NCBI RefSeq assembly: GCF_031127815.1
Contig: NZ_JARXHY010000015.1
Location: 62,001-126,000, forward strand
DNA from: Pelagicoccus sp. SDUM812003
GTDB lineage: Bacteria > Verrucomicrobiota > Verrucomicrobiia > Opitutales > Opitutaceae
Direction: 5' to 3'
DNA length: 64,000 nucleotides
Under the pieces are notes generated by a model. That model was not told where the DNA came from. It made no database searches and worked only from the letters and a program-made list of their open reading frames with translations. Position numbers and translations under genes: made by a program. Below, piece after piece: positions 19,301-62,213 of this stretch. Position 1 is the stretch's first letter, and each line of letters opens with the position of its first letter.

Positions 19301-20524
19301 CTAGCGAGCCTCTCCGTCGATGCCGAAGGCCATGCGCTCGCCAAACAGAGCAAGCAACTCTCTGCGCTCCAACAAACTAAGCTCGTCCGTGCCCTTCAGG
19401 TACGCTACCGCGGCCTGGCGATCCGTGGCCGCCCATTGCTTGACCACTCGGGAAACCGCATCCGCCCGCAGGCCGGCGTCCCACAGCGACTCCGCCCACC
19501 CCAAAGCCACCTCCGGTCGGCGCTCCGCCAAATACGGGTGGTTCACCAACGCCAGCAGACCGGCATCCAATTCCTTGGCCGGCTCCCGGGTCGCAAGCCA
19601 ATCCGCCGCCTCGGCGGGATCCTGGCTCACCCACGAGGAAAGCGACTTTCGAAGGGCTTGCTCCCGCACCTCGCCCTCCGGCAATTCAGCGGCGAACTCC
19701 GCCAGCATGCCGGGGTCGGACTGGGACCAGCTCCCCAAAGCGACTTCGCTCGCCAGCTCCCGATCCGCCCTTCGCTGCAAATCCAAAGCCGCCACCAACG
19801 CTGTCTCCGGCTCCCAACGCGCCCAGGTGGAAAAGCTCTGTCGCAACATGCTCTGGCTCTGGGATCGAGAGGCGGATTCTCCTGCGAATGCCACCGCCTC
19901 CTCAAAATGGCCATTGGTTAGCAAAGCCTCGCACACGCCGCGTTCCGCCGCCTTTTCGAGATGCGTGGGAAACGTTTCATCGTCGGCAAGCTGGGAATAA
20001 ACCGCCAATAAGCTCCCCGGCTGCTCGGCCGCTCCCAGCATAGCGTGCTTCAACGCGGAATCCTGTTCCGCGATATCCTGCTCCAAGGCGAAGCGAATCG
20101 CCGCTTCCGGATCGCGAGCTCCCCACCCTTCGAACGCCGCCTCCTTCAACGCCTTCCGCTCGATGCGACTCGCCGCCCGTTCCGCTAGAGCGAACGCTCG
20201 CTCGGGATCGCTAAAGGCCAGTTCACGAAACGCCTCTCGCTGGCGACTCAATTCGCGCTCGGATCGGGCCGATGGAAAAACGTTCGTCGGACGGGCTCGC
20301 TCCTCCCCTGCAGCGGCCGCTTTCGCTGGCTGCTCTGTACCGACGTCCCGAGAGCCAAGCTGCTCCCTGAGGGTTTCCGAAACCAATGGCTTCCCGCCTT
20401 CGCGCTCCAGATTGGCGGCGGTTCCGTCCGCCGTCATCCGCCCCGCCCAAAACGAAAGGAGACAGCCTCCGATGAGGAGGCTGCCGACTATCCCTGCTTT
20501 CAGTCTGCTTGCGACGGAGGACAT
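19301..20524 (-). CDS. Trp-rich alpha-repeat membrane-anchored protein, paralogue 1
   Basis: Function not recognised. The 407-aa protein has an N-terminal hydrophobic anchor (AGIVGSLLIGGCLLSFWAG), then a charged linker, then about eight imperfect alpha-helical repeats of 35-40 residues. The repeat signature is a Trp followed by an Asp/Glu-Pro and small residues, for example FEGWGARDPEAAIRFAL, FSTWARWEPETALVAAL, LGSWSQSDPGMLAEFAA and LSSWVSQDPAEAADWLA. This resembles TPR/SEL1-like solenoids and suggests a protein-binding scaffold facing the periplasm. A paralogue lies at 37248-38630. The ATG starts two bases after the stop of the VPDSG-CTERM-type protein, which implies translational coupling. 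Confidence 0.72.
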   Translation of the reverse strand: MSSVASRLKAGIVGSLLIGGCLLSFWAGRMTADGTAANLEREGGKPLVSETLREQLGSRDVGTEQPAKAAAAGEERARPTNVFPSARSERELSRQREAFRELAFSDPERAFALAERAASRIERKALKEAAFEGWGARDPEAAIRFALEQDIAEQDSALKHAMLGAAEQPGSLLAVYSQLADDETFPTHLEKAAERGVCEALLTNGHFEEAVAFAGESASRSQSQSMLRQSFSTWARWEPETALVAALDLQRRADRELASEVALGSWSQSDPGMLAEFAAELPEGEVREQALRKSLSSWVSQDPAEAADWLATREPAKELDAGLLALVNHPYLAERRPEVALGWAESLWDAGLRADAVSRVVKQWAATDRQAAVAYLKGTDELSLLERRELLALFGERMAFGIDGEAR

Positions 20525-21190: not shown

Positions 21191-24100
21191 CTATTCCACT
21201 TCGCTGAGCGTCCAGCGCTGGAAATCGCTGCTGGCGTCCGTCGCCCAGCCGACATTGGCGTCATCGGCAGAGCTGTCGCCGTCCACACCGAGCACGCTGC
21301 CGGTGCGAGACTGCGAGCCGATGCGGTGTCCGCCGTCGGCAAGCGTGATGATCCAGTTCTGATTTCCGTTTCCAGGATTGGCGGTGTAGGTGCCGACTTG
21401 GTTGTCGTTGTAGGTATCCAGATTCTCGGAGTTGCTCACCGCAGTGATGGTGTAGTTTCCATTTTCTAGCTTGGTCAGGGTGAAGGTCTGCTCCACGCCG
21501 CCCGTGGCGACGCCTTGCGTCACTTCGCGACCGCTATTCTGCAGCATCAAGCCGCTGCCGACGTTGGTCAGCGTGTAGGTCGCGCCCGAGATGATGCCTG
21601 TTTCCGGATCGGGCTCCGCCGGTGGAGCGACTTCGAAGATGGCGTGGAAGCTCTGCGCTTCGGCTCCCATTTCGAAGATCATTAGGCGGTCGGTGGAAAC
21701 GAGGTTTCCTGATCCGTCCTCCCACTGCACGAACTGGTAGCCCGCGCTTGGCAACGCCTTTACGGTGACGGTCGCTCCTTCCGGATAGCTCGCGGTGCGA
21801 GTGACCAATCCCAAGGCCGTGTCGTTGCTGGACACCGCGACCTCGTACATCGGATCAATCCATTCGATCAGCTGGCTGACATTCGTATCCGTATCGAGAG
21901 ACTCGATACCTTCGATCACCAACCTCGCCATTTCATGAGCTCCCATTTCCTGGAAGTGGACGTTGTCCGCTTTGGCTCCGATGTCGTATTCGCCCGCTTC
22001 CAGATTCATGTAGACAAACGGCCCTGCGTAGTCCGGGCCAAGCGTTTCCAGAAGCTGCTTGGCAGCGAGGTTCAGATCGATCAGAGGCACACCGATCTCG
22101 GCTGCCAGCTCGCGCGTCGCCACCGGATGCTCGTGATAAGCGTCATACATTGTGCTCGAATCAACCCAGGCATTGCGACGTACCGTCGAAACCAATACCG
22201 GATGAGCCCCGGCCGCTATCGTTTCATTCACATACAGGGTAAGGAACTCCTTGAACTCCTCTTCGTTGGTGTTTCGTTCCTCGTCCGCGGCTCGGTCGTT
22301 GATGCCAAACTGGATGAAAACGAAATCGCCTGCTTCGAGCTCCTCCACAACCGGAGTCCAGAAGCTATTGTAGAAGCTCCGAGAGCTGGTACCACCAACA
22401 GCGCGATTCTTCACTTCGACTTCGGGATCGAAGAACTGTCCGAGCACCTGTCCCCAGCCGGTCTGTGGATAGTAGCCTGGAGCGTAGTTCGCGACGGTGG
22501 AATCACCGATGGTGTAGATGGTGTGCGTCTTCGGCTCCGCCTCGCCCGGAACTTCGATCGTCCAATGCTGGCGAGCATCCCCGATGTATTCAGCTTGCAC
22601 GACATTCGCTCCGTCCGCGTCGCTGAGACCCTCCGGACTGAGCACCATAGACTCGGGGCTATTTAGTACCGATATCTTGAATACACCTTCCTCCACAGGA
22701 ACGATCCTCCAGAGTTGATTGCTCTTGGTGGAGTTGAACGTCCAGGTACCGATCTCGTCGCCGGGATAGTGATCCAAGCCTTCGGTGGTCCCCTTCAGAA
22801 TTATGCTGTACACGTCCTCCGACACTTCATCGATCACCCATTGCTGCGAATCGAGGAACGCGTTGACGCCCTGATTCACGGCGCGGGATTCGGACTGTAG
22901 GGCCATGCCGTTGCCGACATTGACGATCTGATAGGTGCCGCCGTTCTTGAAGCCCAGTCCCGGATCGACGCGGAGCTCCACTTGGTCGATGCTGACCGGT
23001 TCGCTGTATCCGAAACGCACGGTGTGGGGTCCGGCCGCGAGATCGATCTCCAGCGGTTCGGTCGAGCCTGACTCCATCACGAAAGCGCCCACGAATTCGG
23101 AGCTTACCGGCATTTCCCAGAAGTACTGCTCGGCTGGTCCTCCGTCTATGGATACGAACGACGAGTTGCTGCTCTCGTCAATCGCCTTGTAGGTCACCCA
23201 CAGGTTGTAGGCCCCATCCTCCTCCACGTTGAACTTGAACTCGACGTAGTTGCTTTCTGAGGCGCTGCCTCCTCCGGAAACCGGTGTAATCGTCCAGCGC
23301 TGATAGTCGCTGCCCGACTCCGCGCTCCAGTCGATGTCTGCTCCGGCGTCGGAGCTCTCTCCCGCTACGCCAATCGAGTAGTCGCCGCGGTTGGTGGTCT
23401 TGAAGCGATACGCGTCACCGTCCTCGATGAGCGTCCAGTTCTGGTTCGGATACCTGGAGGCGTTGGCGACCCAAGTCCCGATCGTACCGGAGGTAGCGTC
23501 GCGGCCACCGTAGGCGTCTACGTTTTCTTCGTTCTCCAAGGCGAAGATGGAATAGTTTCCGCCACCCAAATCGGTGATGACGAACTGCTGATTCCGCTCG
23601 CCAGTCGGCGTCTGCTGATAAATCGATCCACCGTACGCGCTGTCCGAGTCCGCCGCTTCCATGGCCATACCGCTACCGACGTTGGTGATAGTGTATGTCA
23701 TTCCGGATACGAGTCCTTCCGGATCGGCGAATTCGATGTACTGGCCTCCGCTGGCACTGGCGTCGTCGACGACGATCACCGCTCCTTCGGAACTACCCGA
23801 CTCAGCCTCCTGAATCGGCTCGCCGCCATCGGAGAAGAAAATGCCAATCGATACGGCCTCGGAGCTCCCAGTGGCGCCTTCATTGTCGGTCGCCACTGCA
23901 GATAGAGTCACTTCGCCCGCAGTCGCTCCGCTCCAATCGACGGAAAACGGCGCTTGGCTCGCTTCTCCGATCTTCACGCCATCTGCGTAAAACTCTACGA
24001 GGGAAACGGAACCATCCTCATCGGAAGCGCTCGCGCTCACAGTGATGGTCTCGCCTTCCGCGAACACGTCGCCAGAAACTGGAGACACGAGCGAAACCGT

Positions 24101-27100
24101 CGGGGCGAAGTTGCTTGGCTTCACGCGATCGAGCTCCAGCTCGACGAGGTCGAGGAAAAGATTCTCGCGATAGGCGAAACGTACCGTATGGGCGCCTGCC
24201 TCGAGCAAGACGATCACGGGATCCTCGCCGCGGCGGTTCTTCACGTAGTCTTCGATGTAAGTGGCGTTGCGTTCCACATCCCAAGTATGGGTCGTCGCTC
24301 CGTCACCGTCGATGGTCACGAACATGGAGTCGTGAGTTCCGTCGATGGCTTTGACCAGCGTACGGATCTTGTAGAAGCCGGCGACTTCGACGTTGAAGTT
24401 GAACTCAACCCAATCGTCGCCTCCGCCGATCGCTTCGACTGCCTTTCCACCACTGGCTTCGGCGTCTTCAACGATGACAAAGTTGCCAGAGAGCATGCCG
24501 TCTTCGGCCTCCTGCAGCAGAGCTCCGCCTTCCGGAAAGAGCACGCCCACGGCGATGGTTTCGATCTGCGAACCTTCGCCGAAGTTGTCGATTGCCCGAG
24601 CGCCTAAGGTGTAGGAACCTGGCTCGAATCCGTCGAAGTCCCAGGTGTAGGGAGCCGTATCGTCGGATCCGAGCAGACTGTTTCCTTCGAAGAAATCGAC
24701 CCGCAGGATCGAACCGTCGGGATCGCTCGCGGTGGCTTCCATCGTGAAGGATTCGCCAGCGGAGAGAGTGGATCCGTTCGAGGGCGCGACGATAGACACG
24801 GTCGGCAGCTCGTTCTCCACTTCGATCGCGATCGAATAGGGATCGGAAGCTCCGCGGGCGCCGTGGTTGTCTACCGCTTCCGCCCAGACGTCGTAGATAC
24901 CGCCTTCGACAATCCAAGTGAAGGCGTACGGCGGCTCGGTAGCTTCGCCGATCTTGACGCGAGTGTCGCGGGCGTAGTACTCGACGCGGTCGATCGTTCC
25001 ATCGGGATCGAAAGCTTCCGCGGTGAACAGCATTTCATCGCCAAGCTTCCAACCACCGGTGGAAGCCACACCGCCACCGATCTTCACGCCTGCAGCAGGC
25101 GGAGCGACGACTTCCTCGTTGTCGAGATAGGCGATGAAGGATTGCGCTTCGCGGCCCATTTCGAAGGTGTAGATATTCGTAGTGGCGATCTCATTACTTT
25201 CGCCATCGGTCCAGCGAATGAAGCTATGCCCGTCCTCCGAAAGCGCTTTGAGCGTCACCGTCACGCCCGCAGGAAATTCCGAGCCCATGGTGATTTCGCC
25301 AGCTCCGTCTACGTTCGCTTTCAGCGAGACCGGGTACTGCGTCACCAGAGCATCCGCCAACGGCCCGATTTCCGGATCGTCTTGCTGCTCGCGAATGCCC
25401 TCGGCGATAAACTTGGCCATGTAGATGGCCCCCATTTCCTGGAAGTGAGTACCGTCGTTGTTTCCGCTTGGGAAATTCGGGTATTCACCTTCTACATACG
25501 TATTGTAGAAGAAACGGGCGTTATACTCGTAGGACAAGCCGCTGAAAAAAGCGTGCGATTTCGCATTTAGGTCAATCACGTCCACTCCTAGCTCAACGCC
25601 CACTTCCTTCATGGCGCCAGCATAGTCGTTTCCGTCTTCGGTGAAAACGTTGCGCATGGAGTCATTTCTCCACGCATTCATCACCATGGGAGTCACGAGG
25701 ACCGGGATCGCTCCGAGCTCGCGCGCTTCGTTCACGTACTGAGCGATGTAGACCTTGTAGTCAGGAACTGGCGTATAGCGTTCGGCCTTGTTCCAATCGC
25801 GGTCGTTGTGTCCGAACTGCACGAATACATAGTCGCCTTCGGAAAGCTCGGCCTTCACCGACTCCCAGCGTCCTTCTTCGATGAAGCTTCGAGAGCTGCG
25901 TCCACCGATAGCGCGATTGTTGACCACGAACTCGCCGTCGTAGAGGAAGCTTTGGAGAATCTGCCCCCAACCTTTCTGTGGATACGAGCCGCTGTTGTAG
26001 GAGGCTACCGTCGAGTCGCCTACCACATAGATGCTGGTGGCTTCGCTTACCTTATCCTTGGGCGTCAGAAGCGTCACTTCCGGCACGTCGTTGGGCGTGA
26101 TACCGGAGAGCACGATTTCGTCGACGTTGCCAAGGTCGTTTCCGATCGACGCGAAGCGAATGGTGTTCTGAGGTCCAGCCAGCAGCGAGACATTCAACTG
26201 GATGAAGTCGTAAGTCGACCAGCCTCCTGTCGATGGGAATACGATGGGCTGCTCGTTTCCGTTGATCGTGAGCGTGCCAGCCCGTTCGCCGGCAGCTCCG
26301 AGAGCGTAGCGAATCTTCAGCGTAATGGTTCCGCCTATACCTCCGTCGACTTCCTGGAATTCGAGAATTCCATCCGTACCCGGGAAATTGATGGCTCCGG
26401 TGCCGTTGAAACCGAGGTTGCCCGTTTCGAACGAGACGTTTTCCTGATAGGCGTTTTCCGCGTGATAGGTCTGGTCGTCCTCGCTTTGCAGACCGAGAAC
26501 TGTGATTTCATCGACATTCGCCAAGTCGGCGCCGGTCGATTCGAAAAGGACTTCGTTCGACTTTCCTGCATCGAATGGGAATGCCAAATCCATAGTCTTG
26601 TATTCAGCCCAACCACCGGTTGACGGGAACTCGATATCCATGCTGCTACCATTGACCGTCAATCGGCCGATGCGTGGATCCGCCGCACCGAGAGCGTAGC
26701 GAATGCGCAAAATAGCCATGCTTCCGGAACCTCCATCGACCTTGTCAAAGAGGAGGGCTCCGCCATCGCTAGGGAAGTTCGCATAGCCGTCGCCATTGTA
26801 GCCAGGGTTGGTGGACTCGAAGAAGATCTCAGTACCCTCTGCCTCTTCGGCTTGATAGGTCGCAGCGTATCCAGCAGGGCTGACAATGAGCTCGATGGGC
26901 TGGGATTCCATAGCGGCGCCTCGGTTATCGGTAGCGACTGCAGAGAAGCTGTAGGGCCCCTGCTCTTCGCTAGACCAATCGAGGGAAAACGGAGCTTCCA
27001 GGTCCGTGCTCAGTAGCTCGCCTCCGACGTAGAAGTCCACGCTTTCCACGGTGCCCACGCCATCATCGGCCTCGACTTCGATGCGAACCGTTTCGCCCGA

Positions 27101-30070
27101 AGGAACATAGGAACCACTGGACGGAGAAACAATCGCCACGCTGGGCGGATTGTTTACGAGAATCTCCACTTCCTCGGAAGTGGTTTCGGCTCCCATGTCA
27201 TCGGTCGCTGTAGCGGTGAGAGCGTAGAGGCCTTCGCCAACATCTTCCCAATCGAGCGAATACGGGGCCGTGATATCGGTACCGAGAAGCAGGTCTCCGG
27301 CATAGAAATCTACCGATGCGACGGATCCGCCTATATCTTGCGCGGCTACGCCTATCCCGATATCCACTCCTTCAGGGAAGCTGAATCCATTTTGTGGAGA
27401 CACGATTTCGACTGCTGGCGCCTGATTGCGTACGATGCCAGCTACGGAAACTTCGTCCACCATGATGGCTCCGCCTCGGGCCTGCAAACGGACCGTGTTC
27501 GAAGGACCGATCTCGAGGGCGATTTTCACTTCGAACTCCTGCCAGTTCGACCAATCTCCGGTCGAGGGCAGTCGAACCATTTGGCGTTCCCCGTTAACGA
27601 TGAGGAAACACGGATGTACGCCGGGACGCTGGGCGCTATAGCGAATGCGGAGCGTCTTTTCACCGCCGACGAGACCGCCGTCCAAGTCGCGAAATTCAAT
27701 AAAGTGCCACGGACGGCTAAAGGCGAAGTATCCATCGCCTCGATACCCTTCATGCTCGCTCTCGATCGGAGTCCAGCCACGCAGGGCGGTCGATTCGTCA
27801 TAGATTTCGGTATGCCCGACAGTCACCGTAACCGGCAGAGATAAGGTTTGGGCGCCGCTGTCGTCAGTCGCCACAGCTCGCAGATGGAACGAGCCGCCCA
27901 TGGTCGCGTCCCAGAGCGCCGTGTAAGGATCGGTCGGATCGAGGCCGAGATACTTGTCGTTTTCGAAAAACTCGACCTCTTCGACTACGCCGTCTGGGTC
28001 GCTCGCTTCAGCTACCAGCGAAGCGACATCGCCTACTTCGAAGAAGCTGCCATCCGAGGGCGAAACGAGTTCGACCGCTGGCGACTGGTTCGAGCGGTTG
28101 TAGAAATAGTCCGGACGCTCCGGAGTCTCCATTCCATCTCCGAGATAAAATCCGGTATGAGGCGGCTGGTTGTATCCAACATTCTGCCACGCGATGGCGA
28201 GGCGATATTGACGATCATGCATCAGCGTGACCATGCGGCTACGGGCTGGGATAATGGTCGAATAAATGCGCAGCTCGGAGCTGTCCGTCGACCTCCAGAT
28301 CACCTCTTCGCGCCAGTCGCCGTAGATGTCAGCAGAGAGGTTTGGCGTTGCTTTGGTGCTGTTGTTGGATGCGATGCCACTGTCGGTAAACAGCAGCTCG
28401 GAGTGACCCAGATTCCAGTTCCATTTTGTAATCTCGGTGCCGGAAAGCAGCTCGCGAAGTGGATCGGCGTCCCACCAGACGAGGAAGTTCATCGAGGGAA
28501 GTCCGTTCGTCTCGATCGCTTCACCGGTGATGGAATGCATGCCCCCGCGCGAGGCCCATGTCTCGAAGCCACGATAGCGAGGGTCCAAATCCGCCGCTAC
28601 CCCGCGACCGACATCGGAGCCTTCGCCACTTACGCCGAACAGGACTTCTCCCGTCGCCGCATCATGCAGTTCGGATCCGTTGTCGCCATACGAAGACGGA
28701 GACTCGTGCGGCATCCAGATCTCAAGACCGGGACGATCCGGGTCCATGTCGGAAAGGTGCAACGCATCGCCATGACCAATAAGCGTATTGTAAAGACCAG
28801 TACCATCATCATCGATCGTCGCTGCGCCATAGACGATTTCGTCGCGACCGTCCTGGTCGACATCGCCAACCGTCAAGCTGTGGGCGCCCTGACCACGGTA
28901 GGAATCGTTCTCTGGGTTTTCCCAAGTATCGAAGACCCAGCGCTTGCTTAGCACGCCGTCGCGCCAGTCGTAAGCGGCCAGAACAGTGCGCCCTGGAGAA
29001 CCGTTTCTTCCGTAGTAGTATCCACGACACATTACAAGACTAGGACGCTCGCCATCCAAGTAGGCTACCGCTCCTAAGAAGCGATCGATACGATTTCCGT
29101 ATCCATCTCCCCAAATCGCTTCAATCTGGCCGGGAGTCGGGAAATAGGTGCCAGGAACGCGCTGCGGATCATAAAGTATCGAAGCCGCTTCCAGACCGGT
29201 TTCGCCGTTGTAGACGGTCAGGAACTCGGGTCCCTCGAGTATGTAACCGCTACCATTGCGACGATCCGCGCTGTGGTCAATCGGCGGACGCTCGCCAAAC
29301 CACTTGTCCTCCGCGGCCACATACGCGCCGCTGGCATCCATGGACCCTTCGGCGGTACGAACCGCCACTTCCGAAATACCGTCTCCATCCAAGTCATACA
29401 CCATGAACTGCGTGTAGTGGGCCCCGGAACGAATGTTTATCCCGAGGTCTATGCGCCACAGCAATTCACCGTCCAAGGTATAGGCGTCAAGCAGAGCGTT
29501 GCCAGTGTATCCACCTTGCGCATTGTCCTTCGCGTTGGTCGGATACCACTTAACGACGACTTCATAGCGCCCATCGCCAGTCAAATCCCCCACCGACAGG
29601 TCGTTCGCCGTATAGCTATAGTTCACCCCATCAGGAGTGACTCCGCCTTCCGGCACTTGCAGCGGCAAGCTCAGGTACTGGCGAACAGGAGCGTCCATGT
29701 CAATCGACGCAACCCTGCTCGCTCCCAACTCCACGCCATTCTCAACCGGCCTGATGTAATAAGAATTGGATACGCCAAAGTCGACCGATGCATCGATGTA
29801 GTCGGTCGTACCGCGAATAGGCGACGAATTGAGTTTGACCGCTGGCAGCCCGTCCGAGGAACGGTACATATTGAAACCCACGAACTCATCGTCGCTAACC
29901 AGCAATCTCCAGCTTAAGTAGGCTTCGCTCTCGCTCGCCTTCACGGCGACGAGTCCTCTATCTAAATACTCCAGCTGATGAGGCTGGGCGTATGCTTGAA
30001 CAGTCAGGACAGCTAAAAACAGCGTCAAAGCAGTAGCTATCCCACGATACAGCGGGCATCTATTTGGCAT
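21191..30070 (-). CDS. Giant exported pectin enzyme: PL11 rhamnogalacturonan lyase plus two CE12 acetylesterases
   Basis: A 2959-aa secreted enzyme that should cleave and deacetylate rhamnogalacturonan I. Order, approximate residues: signal peptide (1-29, cleavage near VQAYAQ); PL11 lyase (32-655, FG-GAP-like repeats such as VGDLTGDGRYEVVV); Ig-like (660-750); CBM (752-878); two Ig-like (880-1060); two CBM6/35-like (1070-1190, 1200-1325); CE12 esterase (1344-1560; Ser1353 in GDSTV, GHND, Asp1539/His1542); beta-repeat (1581-1650); two Ig-like (1655-1845); CBM (1850-1980); Ig-like (1988-2078); CBM interrupted by a ricin-type lectin (2085-2375); second ricin domain (2378-2505); second CE12 (2514-2720; Ser2524, GIND, Asp2702/His2705); beta-repeat; third ricin domain to the C-terminus. 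There is no sorting tail. The lyase fold family and the SGNH triads are clear; module edges are estimates. Confidence 0.92.
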   Translation of the reverse strand: MPNRCPLYRGIATALTLFLAVLTVQAYAQPHQLEYLDRGLVAVKASESEAYLSWRLLVSDDEFVGFNMYRSSDGLPAVKLNSSPIRGTTDYIDASVDFGVSNSYYIRPVENGVELGASRVASIDMDAPVRQYLSLPLQVPEGGVTPDGVNYSYTANDLSVGDLTGDGRYEVVVKWYPTNAKDNAQGGYTGNALLDAYTLDGELLWRIDLGINIRSGAHYTQFMVYDLDGDGISEVAVRTAEGSMDASGAYVAAEDKWFGERPPIDHSADRRNGSGYILEGPEFLTVYNGETGLEAASILYDPQRVPGTYFPTPGQIEAIWGDGYGNRIDRFLGAVAYLDGERPSLVMCRGYYYGRNGSPGRTVLAAYDWRDGVLSKRWVFDTWENPENDSYRGQGAHSLTVGDVDQDGRDEIVYGAATIDDDGTGLYNTLIGHGDALHLSDMDPDRPGLEIWMPHESPSSYGDNGSELHDAATGEVLFGVSGEGSDVGRGVAADLDPRYRGFETWASRGGMHSITGEAIETNGLPSMNFLVWWDADPLRELLSGTEITKWNWNLGHSELLFTDSGIASNNSTKATPNLSADIYGDWREEVIWRSTDSSELRIYSTIIPARSRMVTLMHDRQYRLAIAWQNVGYNQPPHTGFYLGDGMETPERPDYFYNRSNQSPAVELVSPSDGSFFEVGDVASLVAEASDPDGVVEEVEFFENDKYLGLDPTDPYTALWDATMGGSFHLRAVATDDSGAQTLSLPVTVTVGHTEIYDESTALRGWTPIESEHEGYRGDGYFAFSRPWHFIEFRDLDGGLVGGEKTLRIRYSAQRPGVHPCFLIVNGERQMVRLPSTGDWSNWQEFEVKIALEIGPSNTVRLQARGGAIMVDEVSVAGIVRNQAPAVEIVSPQNGFSFPEGVDIGIGVAAQDIGGSVASVDFYAGDLLLGTDITAPYSLDWEDVGEGLYALTATATDDMGAETTSEEVEILVNNPPSVAIVSPSSGSYVPSGETVRIEVEADDGVGTVESVDFYVGGELLSTDLEAPFSLDWSSEEQGPYSFSAVATDNRGAAMESQPIELIVSPAGYAATYQAEEAEGTEIFFESTNPGYNGDGYANFPSDGGALLFDKVDGGSGSMAILRIRYALGAADPRIGRLTVNGSSMDIEFPSTGGWAEYKTMDLAFPFDAGKSNEVLFESTGADLANVDEITVLGLQSEDDQTYHAENAYQENVSFETGNLGFNGTGAINFPGTDGILEFQEVDGGIGGTITLKIRYALGAAGERAGTLTINGNEQPIVFPSTGGWSTYDFIQLNVSLLAGPQNTIRFASIGNDLGNVDEIVLSGITPNDVPEVTLLTPKDKVSEATSIYVVGDSTVASYNSGSYPQKGWGQILQSFLYDGEFVVNNRAIGGRSSRSFIEEGRWESVKAELSEGDYVFVQFGHNDRDWNKAERYTPVPDYKVYIAQYVNEARELGAIPVLVTPMVMNAWRNDSMRNVFTEDGNDYAGAMKEVGVELGVDVIDLNAKSHAFFSGLSYEYNARFFYNTYVEGEYPNFPSGNNDGTHFQEMGAIYMAKFIAEGIREQQDDPEIGPLADALVTQYPVSLKANVDGAGEITMGSEFPAGVTVTLKALSEDGHSFIRWTDGESNEIATTNIYTFEMGREAQSFIAYLDNEEVVAPPAAGVKIGGGVASTGGWKLGDEMLFTAEAFDPDGTIDRVEYYARDTRVKIGEATEPPYAFTWIVEGGIYDVWAEAVDNHGARGASDPYSIAIEVENELPTVSIVAPSNGSTLSAGESFTMEATASDPDGSILRVDFFEGNSLLGSDDTAPYTWDFDGFEPGSYTLGARAIDNFGEGSQIETIAVGVLFPEGGALLQEAEDGMLSGNFVIVEDAEASGGKAVEAIGGGDDWVEFNFNVEVAGFYKIRTLVKAIDGTHDSMFVTIDGDGATTHTWDVERNATYIEDYVKNRRGEDPVIVLLEAGAHTVRFAYRENLFLDLVELELDRVKPSNFAPTVSLVSPVSGDVFAEGETITVSASASDEDGSVSLVEFYADGVKIGEASQAPFSVDWSGATAGEVTLSAVATDNEGATGSSEAVSIGIFFSDGGEPIQEAESGSSEGAVIVVDDASASGGQYIEFADPEGLVSGMTYTITNVGSGMAMEAADSDSAYGGSIYQQTPTGERNQQFVITDLGGGNYSIFALENEENVDAYGGRDATSGTIGTWVANASRYPNQNWTLIEDGDAYRFKTTNRGDYSIGVAGESSDAGADIDWSAESGSDYQRWTITPVSGGGSASESNYVEFKFNVEEDGAYNLWVTYKAIDESSNSSFVSIDGGPAEQYFWEMPVSSEFVGAFVMESGSTEPLEIDLAAGPHTVRFGYSEPVSIDQVELRVDPGLGFKNGGTYQIVNVGNGMALQSESRAVNQGVNAFLDSQQWVIDEVSEDVYSIILKGTTEGLDHYPGDEIGTWTFNSTKSNQLWRIVPVEEGVFKISVLNSPESMVLSPEGLSDADGANVVQAEYIGDARQHWTIEVPGEAEPKTHTIYTIGDSTVANYAPGYYPQTGWGQVLGQFFDPEVEVKNRAVGGTSSRSFYNSFWTPVVEELEAGDFVFIQFGINDRAADEERNTNEEEFKEFLTLYVNETIAAGAHPVLVSTVRRNAWVDSSTMYDAYHEHPVATRELAAEIGVPLIDLNLAAKQLLETLGPDYAGPFVYMNLEAGEYDIGAKADNVHFQEMGAHEMARLVIEGIESLDTDTNVSQLIEWIDPMYEVAVSSNDTALGLVTRTASYPEGATVTVKALPSAGYQFVQWEDGSGNLVSTDRLMIFEMGAEAQSFHAIFEVAPPAEPDPETGIISGATYTLTNVGSGLMLQNSGREVTQGVATGGVEQTFTLTKLENGNYTITAVSNSENLDTYNDNQVGTYTANPGNGNQNWIITLADGGHRIGSQSRTGSVLGVDGDSSADDANVGWATDASSDFQRWTLSEVE

Positions 30071-30867: not shown

Positions 30868-32892
30868 CTAGAAATGACGCGTCAGCTCAACCGCGAGCGA
30901 TCGGGGCTTCATCACGTGGCTATGTACGTCCGCTACTGCATCGAACTCTCCAGCGAGGCGCGACTCGTACCAGTAGCTGATGTCCGGATCCTGCGAATCA
31001 AGCAAATTGCTCAGAAGGATCTTCCATTCCCAGTTTTCGTTCCCTCCCCTCACAGTCACGTTCACGGTTTCCGATGAGCGAGACCGAATCGCTCCACTCT
31101 CCTCCAAAGGCCTGTCTCCAAAATAGCGATACTTCAAAGAAACGCGTCCCTTCTCCCCCCATCCGTAGCTGAGTCCCGCTCCAAGCTTCCTTTCCACCAC
31201 GCCAGGAATATGCCGCCCCGCCGGATTCAGATCGCTAAAACGAGCGTGACTCCACGCCACATCTAGATCCGCCATAAACCCGGAACCGAGCCGAGCGAAG
31301 CTCGTCCAATCCAGCCCCCACCGCTCGCTGGGGCGCGACGCTTCCGTCTCCCCTGCGTCGCCAACGTACAGCAGCTCCGAATCCAGATCCAATCGCCAGA
31401 GACTGAGCGAGGTATTCAGGCGCTGCTCAAACCGATAGCGAAGCCCCAGCTCGGCGCCTTGAGAGGAAACCAAGGGATCCACCTTGTCGCCAACGCTGGC
31501 GGCTCGCGCGTCGTTGCTGTGAAATCCGTATCCAGCGCTCGCATACCACTCCAAGGCATCGTTCATGGTGTAGACGATATTGGTCTTGGGGCTGATCAGC
31601 CAATCCGACGCCACTCCGCTCTCCATGCCCACCCGACTGCGAGAACGATGATCCACGTTATCCAATCTCGCCCCAAGGTGCATTCTTAACTTGGGCGACC
31701 AATCGACTTTCGCCTCGTAGATCAGTCCGCTCGACACGACGCCGACCTCGTCTTCGCGAATAGTTGAAAGTCGATGACGCTCCTTGGTCTTATAAAGTCC
31801 TACTTGGTCGATGTCATCCCAGCGAAACTGCAAAGCGATGGTGTGGTTCGTCTGCTTGCCGAACAGCTCCTGATAGAAGTAGGTCTTTCCGAAGCTGGCG
31901 CCATAGACCATGCGTCGATCGGCCTGCTCGAATTGGTCGCCATTCACCGGATCTTCCAGGAAATAAGTGAAATTCGACCACAGGTTCATGTCGTAATAGA
32001 TCGAATACGCGTTGGCGAAGGTCCGCACATGCCCTTGGTCCCGACGCCAGTTCGCGGACAGACTATAGCGCGTCGTTCGTCCCCCCACAGTCGGGTCCAC
32101 AAACCCATAGATGGATAGGTCGCCACTGGCGATCGCTCGTTCTGGTATCTGGTCCGTCGCATCCCAGCTGGAGTCGTAGGCCATCGCGGTCACCGAGAAT
32201 CGCTCGTCGTAGTTCCCCGCCGAATACCGCAGAAGTCCGCTGCGCTTGGCGAGGTTTTCATCCAAAACCCAAGGACCGTCGTTTTCCTCCAGCTCCAGAC
32301 CAAAGAGCAGGTTTCCCTCGGCCGCCGGCCGAGACATGCCGCTGACCAGCCGCTGCCGGCCATATTCGCCGACGCTCGCCGAAACGAAGTCCCGCTCCAG
32401 CATGTCTTTGAACCCAATGCTGGCGGACCCGGTGGAGGAGAAATCTCCGACCATCGCATAATACGGCCCTTTGAGGTAGGAGATCATGGATACCATTTCC
32501 GGAATGACAAAATTCGTATCCGCGTATCCCTGACCATGGCCATGCGTAGGAAAATTCACCTGCATCCCGTCGACCATCGCGGCGAAATCGGTTCCGTGGT
32601 CGAGGTTGAATCCACGTAAGAAATACTGCTTGGCCTTTCCGGTCCCGCTATGCTGAGTGGCGATCATGCCGGGCACCGCCTCCAGCAAATCAGAGCCGCC
32701 CTCCGCGGTGGCCAGCGCCAGGTCGTCACCTCCAACATAGCCTTGCGAGGCGCTCATCGCGGCTCCGTGGAGTGAAGTCTCCTGTCCCTGAACTTCGAAC
32801 GACGGCAAATAGACCGCGTCATGAGCCAACGACGAGGACGCGAAAACGGCAGGTGCAAGAAAAAGACGAGCGAGGGGCGACACGCCGTTCAT
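30868..32892 (-). CDS. TonB-dependent outer-membrane receptor
   Basis: Outer-membrane active transporter powered by TonB. Start chosen at 32892 (MNGVSPLARLFLAPAVFASS), which gives a proper signal peptide and has GAGGG nine bases upstream. The longer frame to 32967 would start inside the fabD terminator. The 674-aa protein has a plug domain with the conserved QYFLRGFNLDHGTDFAAMVD stretch, a His/Gly-rich loop (FPTHGHGQGYADTNFVIPE) and SYLKGPYYAMVGDFSSTGSA, then a 22-strand-type barrel ending in the terminal Phe of LTRHF. There is no N-terminal CarboxypepD-like or signalling domain. The plug variant belongs to a family often discussed for metal or small-ligand uptake, so it need not serve the pectin genes. 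Confidence 0.92.
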   Translation of the reverse strand: MNGVSPLARLFLAPAVFASSSLAHDAVYLPSFEVQGQETSLHGAAMSASQGYVGGDDLALATAEGGSDLLEAVPGMIATQHSGTGKAKQYFLRGFNLDHGTDFAAMVDGMQVNFPTHGHGQGYADTNFVIPEMVSMISYLKGPYYAMVGDFSSTGSASIGFKDMLERDFVSASVGEYGRQRLVSGMSRPAAEGNLLFGLELEENDGPWVLDENLAKRSGLLRYSAGNYDERFSVTAMAYDSSWDATDQIPERAIASGDLSIYGFVDPTVGGRTTRYSLSANWRRDQGHVRTFANAYSIYYDMNLWSNFTYFLEDPVNGDQFEQADRRMVYGASFGKTYFYQELFGKQTNHTIALQFRWDDIDQVGLYKTKERHRLSTIREDEVGVVSSGLIYEAKVDWSPKLRMHLGARLDNVDHRSRSRVGMESGVASDWLISPKTNIVYTMNDALEWYASAGYGFHSNDARAASVGDKVDPLVSSQGAELGLRYRFEQRLNTSLSLWRLDLDSELLYVGDAGETEASRPSERWGLDWTSFARLGSGFMADLDVAWSHARFSDLNPAGRHIPGVVERKLGAGLSYGWGEKGRVSLKYRYFGDRPLEESGAIRSRSSETVNVTVRGGNENWEWKILLSNLLDSQDPDISYWYESRLAGEFDAVADVHSHVMKPRSLAVELTRHF

Positions 32893-32949
32893 GCAAACGA
32901 GCCCTCGCCCCAAAACAAGCGCCGACGGATTCAGACGGTAAAAAGACGC

Positions 32950-32983
32950 AAAAAAGCCCGTCCTCACAACGGAGCGACGAGCT
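32950..32983 (-). terminator. Rho-independent terminator of fabD
   Basis: On the minus strand an 8-bp stem (plus-strand arms AGCCCGTC at 32955-32962 and GACGAGCT at 32976-32983, with one wobble pair) is followed by six T (32950-32955). It lies 30 bases after the fabD stop and 58 bases before the chosen TonB receptor start, separating the two transcription units. Confidence 0.75.
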
Positions 32984-58898: not shown

Positions 58899-61800
58899 AT
58901 GTCACTGATCGACCTTATCACCACCGAGGACGAAGCCCTTCGTAACACCTCGCTTTCCAAAGCGTGCGCCTCTCTATCGCTACAAGATTTGCTAGGAGAA
59001 GCCGAGCGACTAGAAACGTTTCGGCAGTCGGAAAACAGCTTGTATAAGAAGGTTCGAGCGCTGTTCTTTCTACACTCGATCCATCGTTACCACCTTCCGT
59101 CGCGTTCCGAGTTTCCCGACCGCGGCAAACTACCTTATCAGGCCCACTTGATGGTCTTGGAACGCCGATTCGAAGAAGCAATTTCGCTGATGCTGAGCGA
59201 AATGAAAAAGGCTGGAGCCAACGATACCCTATCCAGCGCCCTTGCCCACGCCTACCACGAACTCGCTTTCCAAACCTTGGCAGATCAGGTGCGCCAAACG
59301 GTAAGGTCCACTCGAGGCAATACATGGATCTTCCGCATGGGACACAGCCTGGATCATCCGCTAAAGGTGAAAAAGGAGCTGCTTCAAACTGCGTCGCCTA
59401 AATCCGCCTACCCGCTGCTCCGCGAGCAAACGGCCGTTCGCATGGACCTGACGCACTGCGCCTGGAGTGACATCTTTTTCCTCGGTATGGACTTTCCGGA
59501 AGGGGCTCGGGTCATCAACGTCTCCGTCGATCTCGGCGTCCACGGGCGCGATGATGCAACGAATCCCCCCGTCGAGGCCTATCTTCGCGTGATCGACACG
59601 CCTGTGCTACGACTGCGAAGCATCGACCTCGGAGCGACCGCTGACATTCACGAGATCGACGAGGTTTTCGATTTCGCACGCGACTACCTTGGTCTCCTCA
59701 AAGCCGCTATCATTTCGGCGGGGATCGTGCCTCCAGGATTAGAAGGATCCGGTCTTTCGATAAAGAGCGTCTTCTCCACCCTCATAGGACCCGACAAAGG
59801 CCTCGAGATCGTGAGCAACGTGAATAGAATCCCCAAAGGCTCGCGCCTCGCGGTTTCAACCAATCTGCTAGGAGCCCTCATTTCCCTCTGCATGAGAGCG
59901 ACCGGACAAACCCAACGCCTCTCTGGGCCGCTGACAGAAGATGAACGTCGCGTAGTGGCAGCCAGAGCGATCCTGGGCGAGTGGCTTGGCGGCTCCGGAG
60001 GTGGCTGGCAAGATTCCGGTGGCGTTTGGCCCGGCATAAAAATCATCGAGGGACAAGAGGCCACCGAATCCGATAGCGAATTTGGAACGAGCAAAGGCAC
60101 CCTCCTACCCCGACATCGCCTTCTGGACTCCACCCAGATCGGCTCCGCATCCAGAAAAGCGCTACAGGATAGCCTAGTCCTCGTTCACGGAGGCATGGCT
60201 CAAAACGTCGGGCCAATCCTCGAAATGGTCACAGAGAAGTATTTGCTTAGAGACGACAAGGAATGGTCCTCCCGTCTGCAAGCCCTCGACAATTTCGACA
60301 TCATTCTCGAGCGGCTGAAAGCCGGCGAAGTGAAACAGCTCGGATCGCTCCTCACCGAGAACTTTTTCGGCCCCCTTCACGACATCATCCCGTGGGTTAG
60401 TAACATCTATACCGAATCTCTGATTCAGGACGTCAGAGACGCTTTCGGAGAGGACTTTTGGGGCTTCTGGATGCTTGGCGGCATGTCAGGTGGCGGCATG
60501 GGCTTTATCTTTGATCCGAAACGAAAAACCGAAGGCCAAACGTTTCTATCCGAAACTATGCTTCGAAGAAAGAAGCAGTTCGAGCACTCGCTGCCCTTCG
60601 CCATGGATCCTGTCGTTTACGATTTCTCCATCAACGAAAACGGCTCCACCGGCACATTGCTCGAAGGCGAGGACGCCCTGTATCCGTCGGATTACTACAT
60701 GCAAACCCTGCCAGGTTTGCTTCGCATCAAAGCAAAAGACCTCGATCGGACCCAACAGAACGATTTACGCCTCTTCACCCTCGCCAGCCAACGATCCGAC
60801 AAAGGCAAGTTTTCGACAGTCGAGCTGTTGGATCGACTTTTGCCAACCCAAAGCGGGTCGAAGAACGAAACGGACGACCTTCAGTCGTTGCTCCACCAAA
60901 ACGGTTTTGATCGAGAGCTTCACGAACAAATCAAAAGCGACGTGAAAGCGGGTCGGATCGGTCTGGCCATGAATCGACTTTCGTCTTCCGTTGAGATAAA
61001 GGACGTCGCTCCAGAGCAGCTTTTCGACGCCGAAAAGGCCAAAAGCGATGAGCTTATCGAGATCGGGACAAAGGCGATTGAAGACGGAAAGGTCGGCGTG
61101 GTCACCTTCGCCGCGGGCGTAGGCAGTCGCTGGACTCAAGGAGCGGGAGTCGTAAAGTCATTGCATCCGTTTTTCAAATACAGCGGAAAGCATCGCAATT
61201 TCATCGACATCCATCTCTCCAAATCCGCTCTCACCGCAGAGCGATTCGGCGCGAATATCCCGCACGCCTTCACCACCAGCTACCTAACGCACGCCCCAAT
61301 CGAATCCTACCTGAACGGAGAAGAGAAAAAGCAGGGCGTCACCGCTTATCTCTCCCCCGGAAAATCGATCGGTCTTCGCATGATCCCGACCGAGCGCGAT
61401 CTCAGATTCGCCTGGGAAGAAACGGCTCAACAAAAACTGGATGAGCAAAAGCAGAAGATGCTCGAAAGCGTTCGGGCCGCGTTGCTCACCTGGTCAAAGT
61501 CTCAAGGCGAGGCAAGCGACTACACGGACAACCTCGCCGCCCAGTGCCTCCATCCCGTCGGTCATTGGTACGAAATACCAAACATGCTCAAGAACGGGAC
61601 CTTGGCCGCGATGCTGGAAAAGCAGCCAAGCCTTGAATACCTTCTCAGCCACAATATCGATACCCTAGGCGCATCGATCGATCCCCTGCTCCTTGGTTGG
61701 CACATTCAGCAAGGAAACCACCTATCCTTCGAAGTGATTTCCAAGCGCAACGAGGATCGCGGTGGCGGTCTGGCAGCCATCGACGGAAAGCTTCGCATCC

Positions 61801-62213
61801 TGGAAGGCATGGCCCTCCCCCGCGAAGAAGACGAATTCAAGCTCACCTACTACAATACAAATACCAGCCTCATCCGCATCGACTCACTTCTCGAACTTTT
61901 TGGGCTCGATCGAAGTTCCTTAAGTCAGCCTCAACGCGTAGAGGACGCGATTCGCGAACTCGCTCTACGCATGCCCACCTACCTGACTCTCAAGGACGTC
62001 AAAAAACGCTGGGGCGAAGGCCAGGAGGATATCTATCCTGTCAGCCAATTCGAAAAGCTATGGGGAGACATGACCGGACTTCCGGGAGCGAAATGCGGAT
62101 TCGCAGTTGTACCCAGATCTCGAGGACAGCAACTAAAAGATCAGTCCCAGCTCGACTCATGGGTGAAAGACGGCTCTGCAAAACACATCGAAACGCTCTG
62201 TCGCTGGAGCTGA
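58899..62213 (+). CDS. Fused fucokinase-like GHMP kinase and UDPGP-type sugar-1-phosphate pyrophosphorylase
   Basis: An 1104-aa fusion that should phosphorylate a free sugar at C1 and transfer it to a nucleotide. Residues 1-165 are helical and unrecognised. The GHMP kinase part (about 170-560) resembles fucokinases such as the kinase half of Bacteroides FKP: VRMDLTHCAWSD, the RIPKGSRLAVSTNLLG phosphate loop (about 311), GSGGGWQDSGGVWPGIKIIE (about 365) and LGGMSGGGMGFIFDP (about 526). The C-terminal part (about 690-1100) is a UDPGP-family nucleotidyltransferase: the glycine loop FAAGVGSRW (about 737), then EIPNMLKNGTLAAML and HNIDTLGASIDPLLLGWH (about 918). In FKP the pyrophosphorylase is at the N-terminus and uses GTP, so this order and partner are different. 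The sugar is unknown. Confidence 0.85.
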   Translation: MSLIDLITTEDEALRNTSLSKACASLSLQDLLGEAERLETFRQSENSLYKKVRALFFLHSIHRYHLPSRSEFPDRGKLPYQAHLMVLERRFEEAISLMLSEMKKAGANDTLSSALAHAYHELAFQTLADQVRQTVRSTRGNTWIFRMGHSLDHPLKVKKELLQTASPKSAYPLLREQTAVRMDLTHCAWSDIFFLGMDFPEGARVINVSVDLGVHGRDDATNPPVEAYLRVIDTPVLRLRSIDLGATADIHEIDEVFDFARDYLGLLKAAIISAGIVPPGLEGSGLSIKSVFSTLIGPDKGLEIVSNVNRIPKGSRLAVSTNLLGALISLCMRATGQTQRLSGPLTEDERRVVAARAILGEWLGGSGGGWQDSGGVWPGIKIIEGQEATESDSEFGTSKGTLLPRHRLLDSTQIGSASRKALQDSLVLVHGGMAQNVGPILEMVTEKYLLRDDKEWSSRLQALDNFDIILERLKAGEVKQLGSLLTENFFGPLHDIIPWVSNIYTESLIQDVRDAFGEDFWGFWMLGGMSGGGMGFIFDPKRKTEGQTFLSETMLRRKKQFEHSLPFAMDPVVYDFSINENGSTGTLLEGEDALYPSDYYMQTLPGLLRIKAKDLDRTQQNDLRLFTLASQRSDKGKFSTVELLDRLLPTQSGSKNETDDLQSLLHQNGFDRELHEQIKSDVKAGRIGLAMNRLSSSVEIKDVAPEQLFDAEKAKSDELIEIGTKAIEDGKVGVVTFAAGVGSRWTQGAGVVKSLHPFFKYSGKHRNFIDIHLSKSALTAERFGANIPHAFTTSYLTHAPIESYLNGEEKKQGVTAYLSPGKSIGLRMIPTERDLRFAWEETAQQKLDEQKQKMLESVRAALLTWSKSQGEASDYTDNLAAQCLHPVGHWYEIPNMLKNGTLAAMLEKQPSLEYLLSHNIDTLGASIDPLLLGWHIQQGNHLSFEVISKRNEDRGGGLAAIDGKLRILEGMALPREEDEFKLTYYNTNTSLIRIDSLLELFGLDRSSLSQPQRVEDAIRELALRMPTYLTLKDVKKRWGEGQEDIYPVSQFEKLWGDMTGLPGAKCGFAVVPRSRGQQLKDQSQLDSWVKDGSAKHIETLCRWS

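What the first reader, a model, noticed from the sequence alone, without database searches (positions are those of the whole stretch)
21191..30070. One polypeptide carries a PL11 lyase, two CE12 esterases and about twelve binding modules
Rhamnogalacturonan lyase and rhamnogalacturonan acetylesterase are usually encoded by separate genes in a locus. Here they are fused with three ricin-type lectins, several CBM6/35-like and Ig-like modules and two beta-repeats. Both SGNH triads look intact (Ser1353/Asp1539/His1542 and Ser2524/Asp2702/His2705), so the enzyme could deacetylate and cut rhamnogalacturonan I in one complex.
Basis: partly seen in the sequence, partly recalled or inferred. Interest (0 to 1): 0.75.

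Follow-up and report, generated by a model that had tools for sequence, protein, structure and literature searches.

The report
Giant pectin enzyme: lyase plus two esterases
A marine bacterium carries one very long secreted protein that joins a pectin-backbone cutter with two different acetyl-removing enzymes and several sugar-binding modules; fusions of this kind were already predicted elsewhere, but this one is unusually large and its relatives show what parts it resembles.

Summary
Confirmed. Window 21191-30070 (-) is one intact 2959-aa ORF in a Pelagicoccus genome (Verrucomicrobiota): PL11 rhamnogalacturonan lyase, two CE12-type esterases, six Ig domains, five CBM35/6-like modules, three ricin-type lectins, two InlB repeats. 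PL11 calcium/substrate residues and both esterase triads are intact. Two other Pelagicoccus genomes hold full-length orthologs, so it is no artefact. The kind is known: 50 proteins with CE12 and PL11 are reported as predictions (PMC10483417), Ruminococcus has PL11-CE12 and CE12-CE12 proteins (PMC4081043), and C. thermocellum switches on a PL11 and a double-CE12 cellulosomal protein with one sigma factor (PMC4711584). Relatives add an origin story: Pelagicoccus also has CE12-less forms of the same module chain, and another genus of the family has a stand-alone CE12-InlB-ricin protein matching this protein's tail at 49%. The two CE12s are separate lineages, not a recent tandem copy. A ricin lectin sits inside one CBM35 that is uninterrupted in one ortholog. 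Most likely role: deacetylating and cutting rhamnogalacturonan I while bound to it. Activity is inferred, not shown.

The parts
21191..30070 (-). whole ORF, 2959 aa
   Evidence: orthologs
29984..30070 (-). signal-peptide-like N-terminus (residues 1-29)
   Evidence: read from the sequence; no predictor run
28100..29980 (-). PL11 rhamnogalacturonan lyase (31-657)
27815..28087 (-). Ig domain 1, Big_7 (662-752)
27425..27814 (-). CBM35/6-like module 1, weak match (753-882)
   Evidence: below Pfam cut-off; conserved
27143..27424 (-). Ig domain 2 (883-976)
26873..27142 (-). Ig domain 3 (977-1066)
26483..26872 (-). CBM35/6 module a (1067-1196)
26093..26479 (-). CBM35 module b (1198-1326)
   Evidence: best solved relative 2w47
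25373..26041 (-). CE12a esterase (1344-1566), Ser1353/Asp1539/His1542
25115..25339 (-). InlB-type repeat 1 (1578-1652)
24815..25105 (-). Ig domain 4 (1656-1752)
24545..24814 (-). Ig domain 5 (1753-1842)
24125..24529 (-). CBM35 module c (1848-1982)
23840..24115 (-). Ig domain 6 (1986-2077)
23720..23830 (-). CBM35 module d, first part (2081-2117)
23276..23719 (-). ricin-type lectin inserted in CBM35 d (2118-2265)
22958..23263 (-). CBM35 module d, second part (2270-2371)
22547..22951 (-). ricin-type lectin 2 (2374-2508)
21908..22528 (-). CE12b esterase (2515-2721), Ser2524/Asp2702/His2705
21629..21859 (-). InlB-type repeat 2 (2738-2814)
21194..21601 (-). ricin-type lectin 3 (2824-2959)
19301..20524 (-). 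conserved downstream neighbour, 407 aa, no known family (possible partner)

Best explanation
A secreted single-chain enzyme complex for acetylated rhamnogalacturonan I (RG-I). CBM35 and ricin-type modules hold it on pectin. The two CE12 modules take acetyl groups off the backbone galacturonic acid. The PL11 module then cleaves rhamnose-galacturonic acid bonds by beta-elimination, probably in endo mode. Ig domains and InlB repeats act as spacers. Shown here: one intact ORF, family assignments, intact active-site residues, conservation in three species, and separate neighbouring PL11 and CE12 genes in relatives. Inferred: activity, substrate, order of action, binding specificities. Most likely origin: a PL11-Ig-CBM35 protein gained two CE12-InlB units of two related but distinct lineages.
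For: PL11: E 2.2e-219 to RGL11_C over 1-490 of 490. His397, His433, Asp435, Glu456, Arg489, Lys573, Tyr633 correspond to calcium and substrate residues named for PL11 enzymes in PMC8787155 (passages; matched by spacing and alignment) and each is kept in 40-42 of 42 PL11 sequences. A loop present in YesX is absent, as in YesW. CE12: Ser, Gly, Asn, Asp, His invariant in 6 of 6 fused copies and in the 37 of 37 rows; CE12b model pLDDT 96.3, best PDB matches YxiM and RGAE. Selection: pN 0.14-0.17 against pS 0.59-0.78 in PL11, CE12a, CE12b; dS often saturated. Association: 14 of 68 PL11 places have a separate CE12 gene within 20 kb; of 9 CE12-bearing proteins scanned, mostly long ones that I chose, 7 also carry pectate lyase and/or pectinesterase. 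Origin: CE12-less L062 and L064 with the same module order; stand-alone CE12-InlB-ricin L124; trees.
Against: No activity data. The position aligned with YesW Asp172 (recalled as a sugar contact) is Tyr176 here and in 5 of 5 Pelagicoccus scaffold proteins, though it is variable in the family. NCBIfam's PaeY model is hit far below its cut-off (139 vs 1000 bits). CE12 also holds xylan and pectin acetylesterases (PMC10483417), so the acetylated target is not fixed, and most CE12 fusions scanned here are with homogalacturonan enzymes rather than PL11. The gene is not in a pectin gene cluster: neighbours are LepA, a signal peptidase, FabD-like, a sigma-54 regulator and a TonB receptor of siderophore type. 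That the CE12-less form came first is parsimony; the CE12-bearing PL11 clade has only moderate support, 91/74.
Confidence: 0.77

Rival explanations
1. PL11 and CE12 are real but do not act in sequence on one chain: the esterases serve other acetylated polymers (homogalacturonan, xylan, algal polysaccharides), and the fusion only brings general plant- or algal-wall activities to one surface.
For: CE12 relatives in the order are fused with pectate lyase, pectinesterase, GH43 and esterase domains. The two CE12s are distinct lineages, so they may have different substrates. Many different binding modules.
Against: PL11 and CE12 lie near each other as separate genes in 12 of the 35 genomes compared. 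RGAE is among the nearest solved relatives of both CE12s.
Confidence: 0.17
2. One of the two CE12 modules is catalytically silent and works as a binder or spacer.
For: Redundant copies can decay; no activity data exist.
Against: Triad and oxyanion residues invariant in both copies of three species; pN 0.14-0.17 in both.
Confidence: 0.08
3. The CE12-bearing form is ancestral, and L062/L064 lost both esterase units; the stand-alone G121 enzyme is a split-off of the CE12b tail.
For: CE12a and CE12b split before CE12b and G121 did. The CE12-less loci also have a broken downstream neighbour, as if decaying.
Against: It needs two exact losses plus one split-off; among the 68 PL11 places compared, the only fusions are the 2 in Pelagicoccus.
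Confidence: 0.25
4. Assembly error or chance ORF joining unrelated genes.
For: Draft genome in 88 contigs.
Against: Two full-length orthologs with the same core order.
Confidence: 0.01

Closest known systems
CE12:CBM35:PL11 proteins (Metabacillus HUW50_16055; 50 predicted proteins with CE12 and PL11_1 in CAZy; PMC10483417, passages seen)
   Same: PL11 and CE12 in one chain, CBM35 predicted in HUW50; proposed synergy on rhamnogalacturonan; stated to be uncharacterised
   Different: In HUW50 one CE12 is described, N-terminal (22-440), with PL11 at 806-1423. Here PL11 is N-terminal, there are two CE12s of distinct lineages, three ricin lectins, six Ig domains, 2959 aa, Verrucomicrobiota. Architectures of the other 49 were not seen
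Ruminococcus PL11-CE12-CBM13-CBM13-CBM37, PL11-Doc-CBM35-CE12 and CE12-CBM13-Doc-CBM35-CE12 (PMC4081043, passages seen)
   Same: Same enzyme families and kinds of CBM (CBM13 is ricin-type); double CE12 known
   Different: No protein with PL11 and two CE12s in the passages seen; two of the three carry dockerins, none was found here
C. thermocellum Doc-CBM35-RGL11 and RGAE-Doc-CBM35-RGAE (PMC4711584, passages seen)
   Same: One PL11, two CE12s and CBM35; both promoters recognised by sigma-I3 in a B. subtilis test system; both carry dockerins
   Different: Two polypeptides that can meet on a scaffoldin; here one covalent chain
B. subtilis YesW (PL11, 2z8r) and Aspergillus RGAE (CE12, 1deo)
   Same: Catalytic domains and active-site residues
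   Different: These are short single-enzyme chains (591 and 233 residues solved); YesW has Asp where this protein has Tyr176

Membership tests
PL11 rhamnogalacturonan lyase | RGI_lyase and RGL11_C domains | tested here: met
   RGL11_C 1-490 of 490, RGI_lyase 1-83 of 86; 4cag, YesW, YesX
PL11 rhamnogalacturonan lyase | calcium and substrate residues named in PMC8787155 | tested here: met
   H397, H433, D435, E456, R489, K573, Y633
PL11 rhamnogalacturonan lyase | six rhamnose-contacting residues of YesW (list recalled, from no call) | tested here: inconclusive
   Asn156, Asn570, Thr572, Asn630 kept; Gly is Ser571 and Asp172 is Tyr176; both positions vary in other PL11s
PL11 rhamnogalacturonan lyase | beta-elimination on RG-I | not testable with these tools
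   needs assay
CE12 esterase | SGNH fold with Ser / Gly / Asn / Asp-x-x-His | tested here: met
   residues: for both copies; fold: model for CE12b only
CE12 esterase | closest solved relatives are CE12 members | tested here: met
   2o14 and 1deo/3c1u. PMC10483417 names 1DEO as CE12; that 2o14 (YxiM) is its second CE12 structure, CAB15948.2, is recalled
CE12 esterase | acetylesterase activity | not testable with these tools
   needs assay
PaeY pectin acetylesterase (NF041897) | score above the curated cut-off | tested here: not met
   139.2 bits vs 1000 (whole protein)
CE12:PL11 fusion proteins | both domains in one uninterrupted reading frame | tested here: met
   orthologs
CBM35 | profile or solved-structure match | tested here: met
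   modules a and b: (b); c: above cut-off in whole-protein scan only; d: HMM of relatives; module 1 below cut-off
CBM35 | binding of uronic or unsaturated galacturonic acid | not testable with these tools
   ligand of 2w47 is as written in PMC10483417; contact residues not tested here
Cellulosomal enzyme | dockerin domain | tested here: not met
   none in Pfam scans

The most novel reading that the evidence does not exclude
The two CE12 modules come from two different stand-alone secreted esterases and do different jobs (for example different acetyl positions, or neighbouring acetylated sugars), while the CBM35s bind the unsaturated ends that the PL11 module itself makes. The protein would be a self-targeting, covalent counterpart of the C. 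thermocellum PL11 plus double-CE12 cellulosomal pair, assembled by insertion of CE12-InlB units into an existing lyase scaffold and still exchanging lectin modules, one of them nested inside a CBM35.
Probability: 0.3. Interest if true: 0.6.

Novelty: new variant of a known kind. Interest (0 to 1): 0.42.

Why it matters
It offers a natural test of whether joining deacetylation and backbone cleavage in one chain speeds up breakdown of acetylated RG-I. The comparison set already exists: the same scaffold without esterases (L062, L064), a stand-alone esterase with the same tail (L124), and three full-length fusions. It also shows how large carbohydrate enzymes of Verrucomicrobiota may be built from swappable units.

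Tried and rejected
Assembly or frameshift artefact: rejected, two full-length orthologs without stops. Recent tandem duplication of CE12: rejected, CE12a and CE12b are 43% identical and CE12b groups with the stand-alone G121 enzyme (100/98); an older duplication followed by a split-off of the G121 enzyme is not excluded. Non-lyase N-terminus: rejected. Gene-cluster context: gives no support. Structure of the CBM35 with its inserted lectin: the model failed (3 sequences, pLDDT 42.4) and is not used. dN/dS: dS saturated in several modules, so only pN and pS are used.

Rows dropped and limits of counts; typed-in coordinates; 68 PL11 places in 35 genomes were kept (41 genomes with a match; weak and partial rows dropped), and only part's listed CE12 rows were typed in; one search's own listing was cut and it scored at most 8 candidates per genome, so 14 of 68 is a lower bound; it was not tested against a chance model. 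G002 is not among the genomes listed with a match; its fusion is; 10 of 48 PL11 rows (divergent or partial) left out, 38 used; 6 divergent rows of 48 left out, 42 counted; repeated copies of the same places and short hits left out, 48 rows used; the uninterrupted module of L004 was among the 8 sequences the HMM was built from, so its high score is by construction; the split modules of the window and L060 were not; 9 CE12 proteins, chosen mostly for long frames, out of the CE12 frames.

Literature: 10 searches. No PL11 protein with two CE12s was seen in the listings or in the passages read of four papers. The library holds only open-licence PMC papers and CAZy itself was not searchable, so such a protein may be on record there.

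Full report
What was checked. The ORF at 21191-30070 on the minus strand is 2959 aa without a stop. It begins with a signal-peptide-like stretch (read from the sequence). Pfam gives RGI_lyase and RGL11_C at the N-terminus, two GDSL/SGNH domains, six Big_7, ricin-type lectins, InlB-type repeats and CBM6/CBM35 matches. The module map (my boundaries, used) is: PL11, Ig1, CBM35-like 1, Ig2, Ig3, CBM35a, CBM35b, CE12a, InlB1, Ig4, Ig5, CBM35c, Ig6, CBM35d split by a ricin lectin, ricin 2, CE12b, InlB2, ricin 3.

Lyase. The only solved sequences matched at E <= 1e-10 are three PL11 enzymes, 4cag, YesW and YesX. Residues corresponding to those that PMC8787155 (passages) names as calcium- or substrate-binding are present, and each is kept in 40-42 of 42 PL11 sequences compared. 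A loop present in YesX (recalled as the cause of its exo mode) is missing, as in YesW, so endo action is likely. One oddity: the position aligned with YesW Asp172 (recalled as a rhamnose contact) is Tyr176, in 5 of 5 Pelagicoccus scaffold proteins; across the 42 sequences that column holds ten different residues.

Esterases. These are invariant in 6 of 6 fused copies and in 37 of 37 rows of a wider alignment. phmmer finds YxiM and the Aspergillus rhamnogalacturonan acetylesterase for both. A model of CE12b (37 sequences, mean pLDDT 96.3) has 2o14 (YxiM) and 1deo/3c1u (RGAE) as its top PDB matches. CE12a was not modelled. Between the window and its orthologs pN is 0.14-0.17 for PL11, CE12a and CE12b against pS 0.59-0.78.

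Host and orthologs. Of 8 genomes of the genus, 6 have PL11 and 3 have the PL11-CE12-CE12 protein: the window, L004 (2821 aa) and L060 (2954 aa).

How it may have been built. Two other Pelagicoccus proteins, L062 (1838 aa) and L064 (1855 aa), have the same module order from PL11 to CBM35c, then a second CBM35c-like module, but lack both CE12-InlB units (no GDSL domain). G002 holds both forms, so they are paralogs there. In the PL11 tree the two CE12-less proteins form a clade (99/97), the three CE12-bearing ones a clade with moderate support (91/74), and the five together 100/100. In another genus of the family, G121 encodes a stand-alone protein with CE12, InlB repeat and ricin lectin. It matches 4-440 of the 446-residue tail of the window protein at 49% identity; among 387 genomes of the phylum (up to 4 candidates scored each) it was the only other match over that length, and G554 has a CE12-InlB-length match at 34% in a frame with a stop. 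The CE12 tree puts CE12b with the G121 enzyme (100/98), CE12a apart (100/99), and all seven together (100/98). So the two esterases are distinct lineages. Two separate gains, or an old duplication plus a split-off of the G121 form, both fit.

Module exchange. CBM35d is interrupted. An HMM built from eight uninterrupted relatives matches positions 1-33 before and 35-136 after the inserted ricin lectin in the window protein, and L060 shows the same pattern. In L004 the module is continuous (that copy was in the HMM). The inserted lectin of the window is closest to an extra C-terminal lectin of L004 (97/98, 46% identity), not to the lectin inserted in L060 (36%). The structure model of this region failed.

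Setting in the order. In the order sample (372 genomes) 41 have a PL11 match at E <= 0.001 and 90 a CE12 match at E <= 1e-10. Of 68 PL11 places compared, 14 in 12 genomes have a separate CE12 gene within 20 kb and 2 are fused (lower bounds, see Tried and rejected). CE12 is fused with other pectin enzymes here: of 9 CE12-bearing proteins scanned, L118, L096 and L130 have pectate lyase; L118, L131, L089, L102 and L101 have pectinesterase; L131 also has GH43; in all 7 of 9 have one or both. This supports a pectin role for CE12 but does not fix RG-I as the target.

What is known. PMC10483417 (passages) reports 50 CAZy sequences with CE12 and PL11_1 and proposes the same synergy. PMC4081043 (passages) lists Ruminococcus PL11-CE12 and CE12-CE12 proteins. 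PMC4711584 (passages) gives C. thermocellum Doc-CBM35-RGL11 and RGAE-Doc-CBM35-RGAE, both with promoters recognised by sigma-I3. The window protein is therefore a new variant of a known kind. 2w47, a CBM35 of a C. thermocellum GDSL protein, is the best solved relative of CBM35b. describes its ligand as an unsaturated galacturonate disaccharide, the kind of end a pectin lyase makes. That suggests, but does not show, that the CBM35s hold the protein at freshly cut ends.

Neighbours. The TonB receptor upstream is conserved in L004 and L060 (64% and 63%); its best NCBIfam match is a siderophore-receptor model, below that model's cut-off. The 407-aa gene downstream has no Pfam match, no NCBIfam match of note and no solved relative. 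Its five best-scoring places in 8 Pelagicoccus genomes lie beside the five PL11 scaffold genes; it is intact at the three CE12-bearing loci and broken at the two CE12-less ones (a stop in G001, fragments in G002). With five loci this is a hint only.

Verdict. The fusion as a kind is already in print as a prediction. The added interest lies in the two distinct esterase lineages, the natural parts available for comparison, and the nested lectin.

Noticed in passing
window 19301-20524 (-): 407-aa protein with a hydrophobic N-terminal stretch (read from sequence) and no family match; its five best places in Pelagicoccus lie beside the five PL11 scaffold genes, intact at CE12-bearing loci, broken at the two CE12-less ones.
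   Followed up: partly
L073:4662-7469 (-), own genome contig C9: 935-aa protein with three SGNH/CE12-like esterase domains in a row; similar frames of 934-972 aa in five other Pelagicoccus genomes.
   Followed up: partly
L118:364-3063 (+), G007: Pelagicoccus protein joining pectate lyase, CE12-like esterase and pectinesterase; CE12 frames of similar length in G002 and G006.
   Followed up: no
window 23276-23719 (-): Ricin-type lectin nested inside a CBM35; the lectins at this place in two species are not each other's closest relatives.
   Followed up: yes
window 30868-32967 (-): TonB-dependent receptor 798 bases upstream of the gene, conserved in L004 and L060; siderophore-receptor model matched below its cut-off.
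   Followed up: partly
L049, L050, L051, L054, L063: Other 1.9-2.5 kaa PL11 proteins of the same bacterial family carry autotransporter-type PATR repeats and no GDSL esterase domain in Pfam scans.
   Followed up: no
window 58899-62213 (+): 1104-aa ORF whose only Pfam match is a UTP-glucose-1-phosphate uridylyltransferase stretch at 882-1001; the rest is unassigned.
   Followed up: no
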